Below the pieces are notes generated by a model, which was not told where the DNA came from, did no database searches, and saw only the letters and a list, made by a program, of their open reading frames with translations. A DNA stretch of 64,000 nt from an uncultured Lachnospiraceae bacterium (lineage in GTDB: Bacteria > Bacillota > Clostridia > Lachnospirales > Lachnospiraceae). The position numbers and the translations under genes were made by a program. The stretch is from NCBI GenBank assembly GCA_947625775.1, contig CANQPM010000002.1:1-64000 (forward strand). Reading direction: 5' to 3'. Below, piece by piece: positions 19,467 to 31,584 of this stretch (position 1 is its first letter; each line of letters begins with the position of its first letter).

Positions 19467-19469
19467 AAC

Positions 19470-19813
19470 TGGAGTAGACGGGAGTCGAACCCGTGTCCAA
19501 AAAACCATCCCATGTACTTCTACAAGCTTAGCTGATTGTTTCGGGCAAGCCCATTTCCCTTCTGGATAGGCGAACCAACACCCCTATAAAGTCGGTAGCT
19601 TCATAATACGCCCATATGCTCAAAGCTTTGCATACGTCGTTTCCTACATAATCGATGCCTGAATCCCAGCGTGTAGGTGCGTTAGGCCAGACAGCAGCCA
19701 TTAGGCTGCGAGTGCTAAATTATCTTCAGCGTTTAATTTTAATTGTGGATTTAACGCATGCCTGCGACTTGCTTCTCCATCTTCAGATTCCCTGTCGAAA
19801 CCTTTACTACCCC
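19470..19813 (-). ncRNA. ssrA: Transfer-messenger RNA (tmRNA)
   Basis: Minus strand begins ggggtagtaaaggtttcgaca and ends acgggttcgactcccgtctactccA; acceptor stem GGGGUAG/CUACUCC; tag reading frame ends ...NAEDNLALAA-stop; CCA not encoded. Confidence 0.95.
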
Positions 19814-22137: not shown

Positions 22138-22572
22138 TATGCCATAGAGTATTCCAGAAACACGGAAAGCCAGGAAGAAAGAAACCTGATAGATGCCATA
22201 TTTGAAGTAAGCGTAGCAGCCAATAAAGAGGTAGTCGAAGAACTTGTGAGAGGAGATGAGGCTATGTGCCAGGCGCTGATGGAGATAATGAAACCAGAGA
22301 TTGATGAAATAGTGACTATGGCGGTACTGCAGGAATGCAGGAAGACCGCTGAACGCGTAGAAAAGGAAACCGCCGAACGAGTAGAGAAGGAAACCGCTGA
22401 ACGAGTAGAGAAGGAAACCGCTGAACGAGTAGAGAAGGAAACTGCTGAACGTACAATAAAGGCAGCAGTCAAAAGCCTGCGCCGTTTTAATGCCAGTGAT
22501 GCCGACATTAAAACAGCGCTGGTGGAGGATTACGGCATACCAGAGCAGGAGGCTCTCTCGTATTTGAAATAA
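22138..22572 (+). pseudogene. 5'-truncated copy of the PD-(D/E)XK-nuclease-like family (C-terminal region only)
   Basis: AIEYSRNTESQEERNLIDAIFEVSVAANKEVVEELVRGDEAMCQALMEIMKPEIDEI... aligns to the C-terminal part of 47602-48489 and 48582-49517; N-terminal nuclease core missing. Confidence 0.8.
22351..22446 (+). repeat. Four tandem 24-bp repeats encoding ERVEKETA
   Basis: gaacg(a/c)gtaga(g/a)aaggaaac(c/t)gc(c/t) x4. Confidence 0.95.
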
Positions 22573-24827: not shown

Positions 24828-25733
24828 ATGAATATCAATCAGATAAAATACGTGCTTGCAGTGGCAAATTCATCTTCAATGAGGGAGGCCTCAACAAGAC
24901 TCTATATATCACAGCCAGCGCTTTCAGCAAGCATTCACGAGCTTGAAGAAGAACTGGGAATACTGATTTTCGAGAGGACAAATAAGGGAATCTCCCTGAC
25001 TGATGAGGGAAGGGAGTTTATTTCCTATGCCCAAAAAGCGGTAGGGCAGTATGAAATTCTGGAGGACAGGTATCTGTCAAAGGACAGCGGCAAGGAAAGA
25101 TTTTCCGTATCCACGCAGCATTACAATTTTTCCATAAAGGCATTCACTGATACCATACGGAGCATGGAGCCTGAAAAATATGTGTTTTCCATACACGAAA
25201 CAAAGACAAAAGAAGTGTTAGAGGACGTGCAAAGCTTAAAAAGCGAAATAGGCATTATATCATTTTCCAGCTCAAATGAAAATGTGATTAAGAAGCTGTT
25301 TAAGGATTACCAGCTTGAATTTGTGCCGCTGATGAAGCGCGATACATATATTTACGTATGGAAAAACCACAAGTTTGCCAACCGCAAGACAATATCGCTG
25401 GCGGAGCTGAAGGAATACCCCTGCGTTTCATTTGACCAGACGAATGACGGCAGCTTTTACCTCACTGAGGAGGCAATGGCGGATTATGATTTCGACAAGA
25501 TGATAAAGTCTGACGACCGCGCGACCACGATGGAGATTATCGCAGAGCTTGGGGGGTACTCTGTCGGCTCGGGAATGCTTTCGGGTGATGACGCGATTTT
25601 GAAAGGGCTGGTGTCCATAAAGCTCAAAGAGGAGGATCCGCTTATCATAGGCTACATTACACGGAAAGGAATTACATTGTCCGCATACGGGAAAAAATAT
25701 GTTGAGGAGCTTTTAAAGTATAAGGAATTATAG
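24828..25733 (+). CDS. LysR-family transcriptional regulator
   Basis: MNINQIKYVLAVANSSSMREASTRLYISQPALSASIHELEEELGILIFERTNKGISLTDEG HTH. Confidence 0.92.
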   Translation: MNINQIKYVLAVANSSSMREASTRLYISQPALSASIHELEEELGILIFERTNKGISLTDEGREFISYAQKAVGQYEILEDRYLSKDSGKERFSVSTQHYNFSIKAFTDTIRSMEPEKYVFSIHETKTKEVLEDVQSLKSEIGIISFSSSNENVIKKLFKDYQLEFVPLMKRDTYIYVWKNHKFANRKTISLAELKEYPCVSFDQTNDGSFYLTEEAMADYDFDKMIKSDDRATTMEIIAELGGYSVGSGMLSGDDAILKGLVSIKLKEEDPLIIGYITRKGITLSAYGKKYVEELLKYKEL

Positions 25734-25990: not shown

Positions 25991-27679
25991 ATGAAAAAGA
26001 GCATTTTCAGGAAACTTATTACAGGAGCGCTGACTTTGGGAGTAGGAATATCCGTACTCACAGGCTGCGGGCAGACGCAAACGCAGAGCCAGGAAGCAGA
26101 CAATACGTCAGACGCTTCAAACAGGGTTTACAGAACCGTTGATGAGATTAAAGACAGTGGCGAGATTAATATCGGCGTTTTCTCAGACAAAAATCCTTTC
26201 GGATATGTCGATGAAAATGGCGATTATCAGGGATATGACGTGTACTTTGCCAACAGAATCGGAGAAGACCTCGGAGTAAACATCAATTATGTATCGACCG
26301 AAGCGGCAAGCAGGGTTGAATATCTTGAAACTGGCAAAGTGGACATTGTACTCGCAAACTTTACAGTGACAGATGAGAGGGCGGAAAAAGTTGATTTCGC
26401 GCTTCCTTATATGAATGTGGCGCTCGGCGTTGTTTCACATGAGGACAATGTTATTGAAGATTTAGACCAGATTTCACCAGACGACCAGATAATCGTGATT
26501 TCAGGAACTACGGCGGAAACATATCTGGAAAAGAATTATCCCGACATAAAGCTTCAGAAGTTCGATACCTATGCCTCCGCCAAGACAGCATTTGAAAACG
26601 GTACTGGCGTAGCATGGGCAAACGACAATACTGAGGTAATCGCATACTCACTTGAAAATGAAGGCTATGTAGTAGGAATCCCCTCGCTAGGAAGCCAGGA
26701 CACCATAGCTCCAGCAGTTTCAAAGGGAAACAGCTCGCTTCTTGAGTGGCTGAACAGCGAGATTGAAGCATTAGGCAGTGAACAGTTTTTCCATACCGAC
26801 TATGAAGCGACGCTGCTTGATACATATGGCGCAGAATATGAAGATACGCTTGTCGTAGAGGGCGGAAAGCCCGCTCAGTCTGATACTTCAGCACAATCAT
26901 CAGAAACGGAAACAGCCGCGCTTGACATTGTACCTGGAAACGGCGAGACTATAAAGATTGCCGCATCACCTATTCCGCATGCGGAGATATTGCAAAAAGC
27001 GGCGGAAATACTCAAGGATTACGGATATGAGCTTGACATAGTGGAATTTGAGGATTATGTCCAGCCAAATCTGGTAGTGGAATCTGGAGAATTTGACGCA
27101 AACTATATGCAGCACATTCCTTATCTGGAAAGCTTCAATGAGGAGCAGGGGACACATATCGTGAGCGCTGGAGGAATCCACTATGAGCCTTTCGGAATAT
27201 ATCCTGGTACAAAGAAAAGCTTAGACGAGATATCAGACGGAGACAAGATAGCAATCCCCAATGACACCACAAATGAAGCGAGGGCGCTTCTTCTCCTGCA
27301 GGATAACGGGCTTCTCACATTAAACGACGGCGCAGGGCTTACAGCCACGGTAAATGACATCAAAGACAACCCGCACAATATCGAGTTTGTGGAGCTTGAA
27401 GCCGCGCAGGTTGCAAGAGTTATTGATGAAGTCGAATACGTCGTATTAAACGGCAATTACGCGCTTGAAGCGGGATATTCAGTAAGCAAGGATTCCATTG
27501 CATATGAGGCAAACGACTCCATCGCGGCGCAGACCTATGTGAACATTATCGGAGTTAAGGAGGGAAATGAGAATACAGACAAGATAAAGGCATTGGTTAC
27601 GGTTCTTAAATCCGACGACATTAAGAAGTTTATTGAGGACACATATGACGGAGCTGTGATTTTCTTTGAGGAACAGTAA
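25991..27679 (+). CDS. Fused substrate-binding lipoprotein: polar amino-acid SBP (SBP_bac_3 type) + MetQ/NlpA type
   Basis: LTGCGQ lipobox; first half GEINIGVFSDKNPFGYVDENGDYQGYDVYFANRI; second half IKIAASPIPHAEILQKAAEILKDYGYELDIVEFEDYVQPN; Ser/Thr linker between. Confidence 0.9.
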   Translation: MKKSIFRKLITGALTLGVGISVLTGCGQTQTQSQEADNTSDASNRVYRTVDEIKDSGEINIGVFSDKNPFGYVDENGDYQGYDVYFANRIGEDLGVNINYVSTEAASRVEYLETGKVDIVLANFTVTDERAEKVDFALPYMNVALGVVSHEDNVIEDLDQISPDDQIIVISGTTAETYLEKNYPDIKLQKFDTYASAKTAFENGTGVAWANDNTEVIAYSLENEGYVVGIPSLGSQDTIAPAVSKGNSSLLEWLNSEIEALGSEQFFHTDYEATLLDTYGAEYEDTLVVEGGKPAQSDTSAQSSETETAALDIVPGNGETIKIAASPIPHAEILQKAAEILKDYGYELDIVEFEDYVQPNLVVESGEFDANYMQHIPYLESFNEEQGTHIVSAGGIHYEPFGIYPGTKKSLDEISDGDKIAIPNDTTNEARALLLLQDNGLLTLNDGAGLTATVNDIKDNPHNIEFVELEAAQVARVIDEVEYVVLNGNYALEAGYSVSKDSIAYEANDSIAAQTYVNIIGVKEGNENTDKIKALVTVLKSDDIKKFIEDTYDGAVIFFEEQ

Positions 27680-27733
27680 TGAAAAACAGGGAGAGGCGTA
27701 AAAGTCTCTCCCTATTATATAAGGTGGTGGGCT

Positions 27734-28747
27734 ATGGCTGCAGTTGAGATAAAAAATCTTACGAAAAATTTTGATATAGAAGGGCATACCGTCACGGCGC
27801 TCAGCAACGTGTGCCTGACGATTGAAAAGGGAGATATATTCGGAGTTATCGGAATGTCGGGCGCGGGGAAAAGCACCCTTGTACGTTCCATCAATTTTTT
27901 GGAAAAACCGACAGACGGAAGCGTATATATTGATGGCGTTGACCTCGGAACTCTCTCGGAGCGTGAGCTGCGCAGGATGCGCTCGCGAATCGGGATGATT
28001 TTCCAAAACTTTAACCTCCTCGAGCAGAAAAACGTTATCGACAATGTATGCTTTCCATTAGAGATAAACGGCACTAAGCGCAAGGAGGCAAAAAAACGGG
28101 CATTGGAGCTTCTCGGACTTGTAAAGCTTGAAGATAAGGCAAAAGCTTATCCTTCCCAATTATCGGGCGGACAAAAACAGCGTGTCGCAATAGCCCGTGC
28201 GCTTGCGACAGATCCACAGCTTCTCTTATGTGATGAGGCGACAAGTGCGCTAGATCCGCAGACGACAGGCTCTATTCTGGAATTGATAAGGGAAATCAAC
28301 GAAAAACTTGGCATAACCGTAGTGATCATAACGCATCAGATGTCCGTAGTGACTGACATTTGTAAAAAAGTGGCGATTATAGACAACGGAAGACTGGTTG
28401 AGGAAGGGCTTGTGGAGGAAATCTTCAGCGCCCCGAAATCAGACGCGGCAAGAGAGCTTTTATCAGGGAAAAAGGTTTCTTACAAACCGCTGGAAAAACT
28501 GGAGGAAGGGCGCAGGATAAGAATTGTTTTCAGGGAAAACTCAGCCTATGAGCCAGTGATCGCCAATTTGATCTTAAAGCTGCAAATTCCCATAAACATT
28601 CTCAAAGCCGAAACCCAAAATGTCGGCGGCAAGGCAGTCGGCGAGATGATTCTTGGATTGCCCGACAACAGCAATCAGCAGGAGGATATTATCCTTGAAT
28701 TAAAAAATGCGGGGCTTACCGTGACGGAGGTGCATGAAAATGAATGA
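27734..28747 (+). CDS. metN: Methionine-type ABC transporter ATP-binding protein with C-terminal NIL domain
   Basis: Walker A GMSGAGKST, LSGGQKQR; FGVIGMSGAGKSTLVRSINFLEKPT; NIL-like C-terminus. Confidence 0.9.
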   Translation: MAAVEIKNLTKNFDIEGHTVTALSNVCLTIEKGDIFGVIGMSGAGKSTLVRSINFLEKPTDGSVYIDGVDLGTLSERELRRMRSRIGMIFQNFNLLEQKNVIDNVCFPLEINGTKRKEAKKRALELLGLVKLEDKAKAYPSQLSGGQKQRVAIARALATDPQLLLCDEATSALDPQTTGSILELIREINEKLGITVVIITHQMSVVTDICKKVAIIDNGRLVEEGLVEEIFSAPKSDAARELLSGKKVSYKPLEKLEEGRRIRIVFRENSAYEPVIANLILKLQIPINILKAETQNVGGKAVGEMILGLPDNSNQQEDIILELKNAGLTVTEVHENE

Positions 28748-30067: not shown

Positions 30068-30736
30068 ATGGGATTTGAAGTATTGTTAAAGGGAAATAAC
30101 ATGATAAGGCTTCTTGGGGGGCTTGCTGTCGCGCTTAAAATCAGCCTGATATCTGTATGCATAAGCCTGATTATGGGGACAGTGTTTGGAAGCTTAATGA
30201 ATGACAGGCATCCGCTGATTAAAAAGATTCTAAGGGCATACCTTGAAATTGTCAGGATTATGCCCCAGCTGGTGCTGCTGTTCATCGCCTACTTCGGGAC
30301 TACAAAGGCTTTAGGCGTAAACATCTCCGCAGAGGCAGCTTCAATAATCGTATTTTCCTTTTGGGGCTCTGCGGAAATGGCTGACCTTGTGCGTGGGGCG
30401 CTTTCGGGCATACCGCCTGCCCAGTACGAGAGCAGTCTTGCGCTTGGACTGACTTATCACCAGACGCTTGTTTATATTATCATTCCGCAGATTATAAGGA
30501 GAATGCTCCCGCTGTCAATTAACTTGATTACCAGAATGATTAAGACTACAAGCCTGATTATGATGATTGGCATTGTAGAGGTCTTAAAGGTAGGACAGCA
30601 GATTATCGAAGCAAACCGCAAAAATTATCCGAATGCGGCTTTTGGCATATATTTTACTGTATTTGTCCTGTATTTCGCCGTATGCTGGCCGATCAGCATG
30701 CTTTCAAGATATCTTGAAAGAAAATGGGAGGCATAG
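30068..30736 (+). CDS. Polar amino-acid ABC transporter permease
   Basis: YLEIVRIMPQLVLLFIAYFGTTKALG; SLALGLTYHQTLVYIIIPQ. Confidence 0.9.
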   Translation: MGFEVLLKGNNMIRLLGGLAVALKISLISVCISLIMGTVFGSLMNDRHPLIKKILRAYLEIVRIMPQLVLLFIAYFGTTKALGVNISAEAASIIVFSFWGSAEMADLVRGALSGIPPAQYESSLALGLTYHQTLVYIIIPQIIRRMLPLSINLITRMIKTTSLIMMIGIVEVLKVGQQIIEANRKNYPNAAFGIYFTVFVLYFAVCWPISMLSRYLERKWEA

Positions 30737-30837: not shown

Positions 30838-31584
30838 GTGATTAGGATGAACGAAATTTTGAATATCAATGGCATTAGTAAAAAATATGGCGATCTTGTC
30901 GTGCTGGATAACTTGAGCCTAAAGGTCAAGAGTGGTGAAGTGGTAGTGATAGTAGGCCCGTCGGGATGCGGGAAAAGTACGCTTTTAAGGTGCATAAACG
31001 CGCTTGAAATAATAGATGACGGAGAAGTGGCGCTTGACGGAAAGGCTATCAACCCGCATGACAAAAAACTGAGCAAAGTAAGAGAAAAAATCGGAATGGT
31101 TTTCCAAAGCTACGAGCTGTTTCCGCACAAGACAATCCTGCAGAATCTTGTACTGGCGCCTGTCAGAGTGAAAAAAATGAATCGCAAAGAAGCTGAAAAG
31201 GAAGCGCTCCACCTTCTGGAAAGAGTAGGGCTGCTCTCAAAAAAGGATAATTACCCAAGACAGCTTTCAGGCGGCCAGAAACAGAGGGTGGCAATCGTCA
31301 GGGCGCTCATGATGAATCCGGAGATTTTGCTTATGGACGAAATCACGGCAGCGCTCGATCCTGAAATGGTAAGAGAGGTATTGGAGGTAGTGCTGGATTT
31401 GGCAAAAGAAGGGCGTACAATGATTATCGTAACCCATGAGCTTCAATTCGCAAAAGCTGCAGCAGACCGCATGGTATTTATAGACGGCGGCAGGATTATC
31501 GAAGAAGGAGAGCCAAAGGAATTTTTTGAAAATCCCAAGACGGAAAGACTGAAAAAATTTTTACATTCGTTTACTTATGAATAA
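30838..31584 (+). CDS. Polar amino-acid ABC transporter ATP-binding protein (GlnQ-like)
   Basis: VGPSGCGKSTLLRCINALE, LSGGQKQRVAIVRALMMNPEILLMDEITAALDPEMV. Confidence 0.92.
   Translation: MIRMNEILNINGISKKYGDLVVLDNLSLKVKSGEVVVIVGPSGCGKSTLLRCINALEIIDDGEVALDGKAINPHDKKLSKVREKIGMVFQSYELFPHKTILQNLVLAPVRVKKMNRKEAEKEALHLLERVGLLSKKDNYPRQLSGGQKQRVAIVRALMMNPEILLMDEITAALDPEMVREVLEVVLDLAKEGRTMIIVTHELQFAKAAADRMVFIDGGRIIEEGEPKEFFENPKTERLKKFLHSFTYE

What the first reader, a model, noticed from the sequence alone, without database searches (positions are those of the whole stretch)
25991..27679. Natural fusion of two different substrate-binding proteins in one lipoprotein
One ORF carries a full polar amino-acid type (SBP_bac_3) domain, a Ser/Thr linker and a full MetQ/NlpA domain. 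The two domains normally serve different ABC importer classes, yet here they share one lipid anchor.
Basis: partly seen in the sequence, partly recalled or inferred. Interest (0 to 1): 0.75.

Follow-up and report, generated by a model that had tools for sequence, protein, structure and literature searches.

The report
Two nutrient receptors fused for uptake
Many gut bacteria of one family make a single membrane-tethered protein that carries both a cysteine-type and a methionine-type receptor, and next to its gene they keep the parts of both matching import pumps, so one protein probably feeds two different pumps.

Summary
Window 25991-27679 is one open frame of 562 aa: lipoprotein signal with lipobox Cys26, an SBP_bac_3 domain, a flexible Ala/Glu/Ser/Thr-rich linker, and a complete MetQ/NlpA domain. 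It is no sequencing error: I read 97 fused frames (84 distinct proteins), mostly from Lachnospiraceae, all in the same domain order. The N-half is closest to solved L-cysteine receptors and the C-half to MetQ; ligand-contact residues are conserved in both. The operon also encodes both cognate importers: MetN-MetI and a polar-amino-acid importer (two permeases plus a GlnQ-type ATPase). In 16 of 17 fused genomes checked, the window's included, the fusion is the only NlpA/MetQ protein, so it must serve methionine import if MetNI works. Neither half's tree lets all fusions form one clade (AU p = 0.00013 each), and three domain pairings exist, so the fusion arose, or exchanged halves, more than once; it was also lost, once leaving its linker behind. 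Best reading: one lipid-anchored double receptor shared by two different ABC importers for sulfur amino acids. Ligands and docking are inferred, not tested. It is a new variant of known tandem receptors such as GlnPQ.

The parts
24828..25733 (+). LysR-type regulator, linked to the operon in the nearest relatives and in the type III locus L149
   Evidence: Pfam HTH_1 and LysR_substrate; 90-99% in L052-L057, 73-77% near the fusion in L036, L065, L066, L149
25991..26068 (+). lipoprotein signal peptide with lipobox LTGC (lipidated Cys26 expected)
   Evidence: sequence; residues 23-26
26129..26866 (+). N-terminal receptor domain, SBP_bac_3, L-cysteine-receptor type (residues 47-292)
   Evidence: Pfam PF00497; best solved relatives 2yjp and 1xt8 by sequence and fold
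26867..26941 (+). disordered inter-domain linker (residues 293-317)
   Evidence: pLDDT below 50 at 296-309; 18-43 aa between the aligned halves, median 29, in 97 frames; no Cys
26942..27676 (+). C-terminal receptor domain, MetQ/NlpA (residues 318-562)
   Evidence: Pfam PF03180; 4ib2 76% identical, TM-score 0.92 over the target; E. coli MetQ N229 aligns with N518
27688..27713 (+). strong RNA hairpin between the receptor gene and metN
   Evidence: 10-bp stem, -19.4 kcal/mol; 54 of 75 fused loci fold below -8 kcal/mol in the 55 nt after the stop
27734..28747 (+). MetN-type ATPase with NIL domain
   Evidence: TIGR02314 (345 bits, below its cut-off of 500), PF09383
28734..29399 (+). MetI permease
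   Evidence: NF008049, 223.9 bits over the cut-off of 212; only MetI in the genome
29405..30064 (+). polar-amino-acid-type permease 1
   Evidence: TIGR01726 over cut-off, BPD_transp_1
30068..30736 (+). polar-amino-acid-type permease 2
   Evidence: TIGR01726 over cut-off, BPD_transp_1
30838..31584 (+). GlnQ/ArtP/TcyN-type ATPase
   Evidence: best NCBIfam matches GlnQ, EhuA, TcyN, below their cut-offs

Best explanation
The gene encodes a two-headed, lipid-anchored receptor shared by two separate type I ABC importers encoded in the same operon. The N-terminal head (cysteine-receptor type) captures L-cysteine or a close relative and docks on the two-permease/GlnQ-type importer. The C-terminal head (MetQ) captures methionine and docks on MetNI. 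Flexible tethers (about 20 aa from lipid to head 1, about 25 aa between heads) let each head reach its own transporter. The point of the fusion is probably to fix a 1:1 dose and local concentration of both sulfur-amino-acid receptors with one secretion signal and one anchor, made in excess over the permeases because of the hairpin after the receptor gene. Shown here: the fusion, its conservation, both importers in the operon, conserved contact residues, and that it is the sole MetQ. Inferred: the ligands, docking of each half, and the dosage rationale.
For: Single frame with both complete domains. All seven elements (both heads, MetN, MetI, two permeases, GlnQ-type ATPase) lie together in about 70 fused loci in three gene orders; most other loci are cut by contig ends. 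The fusion is the only PF03180 protein of the genome and of 16 of 17 fused genomes, next to the only MetI. Methionine contacts of Neisseria MetQ (R156, N213, N238, Y81, H100, Y103; PMC6739813) correspond to R431, N487, N518, Y356, H375, Y378 of the fusion, invariant in 34 fused proteins. Ligand residues modelled in the related receptor FliY (Thr109, Arg114, Asp192) correspond by motif to T125, R130, D212, also invariant. Nearest solved receptors bind L-cysteine (2yjp, 1xt8). Tandem receptor domains in GlnPQ bind independently of each other (PMC8025302). In the type III locus L149 a glutamate-cysteine ligase homologue follows MetI directly.
Against: No binding or transport data. F98 of Neisseria MetQ is Met373 in the window protein (Phe in most relatives). 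In L104 the fusion has no MetNI beside it, and that genome has a second, separate MetQ next to its only MetI. Docking of a head that is tethered to another domain was not modelled.
Confidence: 0.8

Rival explanations
1. Only one head feeds a transporter; the other is a regulatory or accessory domain (for example the PAAT-like head senses cysteine and modulates MetNI, or raises local substrate).
For: Extra ligand-binding domains with accessory roles exist (the ZinT-like domain of AdcA, PMC8416893; tandem domains of BvgS).
Against: Both cognate permease/ATPase sets are kept in the operon in about 70 loci and both pockets are intact.
Confidence: 0.1
2. The two heads are released from each other after secretion by cleavage of the linker, so the gene is only a way to co-express two ordinary receptors.
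For: The linker is disordered and variable.
Against: Released MetQ would have no lipid anchor in a Gram-positive cell; no Cys or second signal between the domains in 84 distinct proteins.
Confidence: 0.07
3. Artefact: a lost stop or frameshift joined two adjacent genes in this assembly.
For: None found.
Against: 97 fused frames in independent assemblies, no vestige of a second signal peptide.
Confidence: 0.01

Closest known systems
GlnPQ (SBD1-SBD2 tandem; 6h30)
   Same: Two receptor domains in one chain joined by a short flexible linker, each with its own ligand profile.
   Different: In GlnPQ both domains are of one family, are joined to the permease, and feed one transporter; here the domains are of two families, are lipid-anchored, and the two importers are separate proteins.
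MetNIQ methionine importer
   Same: MetN with NIL domain, MetI, MetQ with conserved methionine contacts.
   Different: MetQ is not free-standing but the C-terminal head of another receptor.
PAAT cysteine receptors Ngo2014 (2yjp) and Cj0982/CjaA (1xt8)
   Same: The N-terminal head is 44-49% identical with the same fold.
   Different: Those are single-domain receptors.
AdcA (zinc receptor with ZinT-like C-terminal domain)
   Same: One lipoprotein with two unlike metal-binding domains.
   Different: Both domains serve one importer (AdcCB) and one ligand.
TAXI-GltS fusions (also in Lachnospiraceae)
   Same: Receptor fusions in the same family, explained as a way of tethering (PMC12344293).
   Different: Receptor fused to its transporter, not receptor to receptor.

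Membership tests
SBP_bac_3 (PF00497) receptors | family profile over its cut-off and complete fold | tested here: met
   95.7 bits against 26.4; TM-score 0.82 to 2yjp and 1xt8
L-cysteine receptors of the PAAT group | binds L-cysteine | not testable with these tools
   Nearest solved relatives bind cysteine; contact residues conserved
MetQ/NlpA (PF03180) | family profile over its cut-off and complete fold | tested here: met
   276.8 bits against 27; 4ib2 TM-score 0.92
MetQ/NlpA (PF03180) | methionine-contact residues | tested here: met
   R, two N, H and two Y conserved; the F98 position is Met in the window protein
MetNIQ importer | MetN with NIL domain and MetI encoded with the receptor | tested here: met
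MetNIQ importer | MetN equivalog score (TIGR02314) | tested here: not met
   345 bits, cut-off 500; hence described as MetN-type
GlnPQ-type tandem receptors | receptor domains fused to the permease | tested here: not met
   permeases are separate genes
GlnPQ-type tandem receptors | both domains deliver to one transporter | not testable with these tools
   two importers are encoded in the operon; delivery was not measured
Lipoproteins | lipobox with Cys after the signal | tested here: met
   LTGC at 23-26; 90 of 93 fused frames have a lipobox

The most novel reading that the evidence does not exclude
The double receptor physically bridges MetNI and the PAAT importer into one sulfur-amino-acid uptake complex in which occupancy of one head affects delivery by the other, so that cysteine and methionine uptake are mechanically coordinated.
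Probability: 0.1. Interest if true: 0.85.

Novelty: new variant of a known kind. Interest (0 to 1): 0.6.

Why it matters
ABC importers are described as having one or more receptors for one transporter. A conserved protein that puts the receptors of two different importer classes on one anchor would be a case of one receptor chain for two transporters. Several pairings and a de-fusion fossil give natural variants for testing what tethering, dosage and linker length do for uptake. It also warns annotation pipelines that may name such genes after one half only.

Tried and rejected
Sequencing error or lost stop: rejected. A riboswitch or T-box for sulfur metabolism upstream: no Rfam match in the window except tmRNA. 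Long NlpA frames elsewhere as other fusions: the two inspected (G689, G037) are ordinary MetQ with in-frame sequence upstream of the start. Fusions outside the class: none among 399 sampled genomes of the phylum at E 1e-60. A first one-clade test on NlpA without near unfused relatives of type III was inconclusive (p 0.178) and was replaced by a set with nearer unfused relatives. Gene neighbours as ligand clues gave no common enzyme; only L149 has a cysteine enzyme. Laying the whole genome in the Python box was not available. Literature searches found no paper describing this fusion; the library is open-access only.

Full report
Observation. The frame at 25991-27679 encodes 562 aa with a lipoprotein signal (LTGC, Cys26), SBP_bac_3 (59-262) and Lipoprotein_9 (321-557). 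The best solved relatives are, for the N-half, the L-cysteine receptors 2yjp (N. gonorrhoeae) and 1xt8 (C. jejuni), and for the C-half 4ib2 (R. gnavus, MetQ-like, 76% identical). AlphaFold2 with 43 sequences gives mean pLDDT 83 and pTM 0.55: two confident domains, with an unstructured tether and linker, so the relative placement of the domains is not defined.

Operon. Downstream on the same strand lie a MetN-type ATPase with NIL domain, MetI, two PAAT-type permeases and a GlnQ-type ATPase, ending at 31584; a LysR regulator lies upstream. A strong hairpin separates the receptor gene from metN; a stable fold follows the fusion in 54 of 75 loci. This fits the usual excess of receptor over permease, which is an inference from known operons.

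Distribution. In a sample of 150 genomes of the family, nine including the window's own carry the full-length fusion, while others carry the two halves as separate, mostly unlinked genes. A scan of genome contigs gave about 75 more fused loci, nearly all Lachnospiraceae, many with record titles naming rumen, rabbit or horse sources, including isolates such as Butyrivibrio sp. NC2002 and Lachnospiraceae bacterium XBB2008 (the list was cut at the best 80 of 183). In all, 97 fused frames (84 distinct proteins) were read; the order is always SBP_bac_3 then NlpA, with 18-43 aa (median 29) between the aligned halves and no Cys in it. In the class sample three of 391 genomes, and in the phylum sample the same three of 399, had it.

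Gene orders. Sixty loci have fusion-MetN-MetI-permease-permease-GlnQ; eight have permease-permease-GlnQ-fusion-MetN-MetI, as has L149; L124 has fusion-permease-permease-GlnQ-MetN-MetI; the rest are mostly cut by contig ends. Thus both importers accompany the fusion whatever the order. L104 is the exception: no MetNI beside it and a second MetQ elsewhere.

More than one pairing. Type I (window) pairs SBP3 group 1 with NlpA group 1. Type II (L114-L121, L123) has an SBP3 that groups with unfused receptors L152-L158 on a long, fully supported branch. Type III (L124, L125, L133) has an NlpA whose nearest relative is an unfused protein of another family (G326, 69%). Holding all fused rows together is rejected for SBP3 (log-likelihood drop 168, AU p 0.000125; suspected de-fusions left out) and for NlpA (drop 155, p 0.000126). 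These are quick trees; they show that one vertical fusion does not explain both halves, but not whether the cause is independent fusion or later exchange of a half. Losses also occur: L130 and L131 (88% and 87% identical N-half followed at once by the permease) and L134/L147, which ends in a Ser/Ala/Glu tail of about 44 aa like the linker but has no second domain; all three sit inside the fused group in the N-half tree with moderate support, and their genomes have separate MetQ genes.

Function. The fusion is the only NlpA-family protein in the window's genome, and the neighbouring MetI the only clear MetI. The same holds in 15 further fused genomes; with L104 as the exception this is 16 of 17. 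If MetNI works at all, the fused C-half must be its receptor. Methionine-contact residues known from Neisseria MetQ, and E. coli N229, are conserved, with Phe98 replaced by Met373 in the window protein. The N-half keeps the residues that correspond to the amino-acid contacts modelled in FliY (T125, R130, D212). Cysteine is therefore the likely ligand of head 1 and methionine of head 2; neither was measured. In type III locus L149 a glutamate-cysteine ligase homologue follows MetI directly.

Comparison. Tandem receptors are known from GlnPQ, where the domains bind independently and linker length affects transport rate (PMC8025302), and from sensors such as BvgS. AdcA joins two unlike zinc-binding domains for one importer (PMC8416893). 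Receptor-to-transporter fusions of another class have been reported from Lachnospiraceae (PMC12344293). I found no report of a receptor chain joining two importer classes, in an open-access library only. I rate it a new variant of a known kind.

Limits. There is no ligand, docking or transport evidence; most loci are metagenome assemblies; the taxon sample of the broad searches is thin; the tree tests used short searches.

Noticed in passing
window 27688-27713: Strong hairpin between the fusion gene and metN; stable folds follow the receptor gene in most relatives, suggesting differential expression of receptor and permeases.
   Followed up: partly
L147 5092-5960: N-half receptor ending in a Ser/Ala/Glu-rich tail of about 44 aa like the fusion linker but without the second domain: an apparent fossil of a lost fusion.
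   Followed up: partly
L149 5638-7612: Glutamate-cysteine ligase and EgtC-like amidotransferase homologues directly after MetI in a type III fusion operon.
   Followed up: partly
L106, L109, L124 fusion N-termini: Three fused receptors lack an evident lipobox cysteine although they have signal-like N-termini; L109 reads TGIG where others read TGCG.
   Followed up: no
window 22246-22572: Short open frame with several near-perfect copies of ETAERVEK, a repeat-built, coiled-coil-like end of a protein.
   Followed up: no
window 19467-19813 (-): tmRNA gene (Rfam RF00023, 132.5 bits).
   Followed up: no
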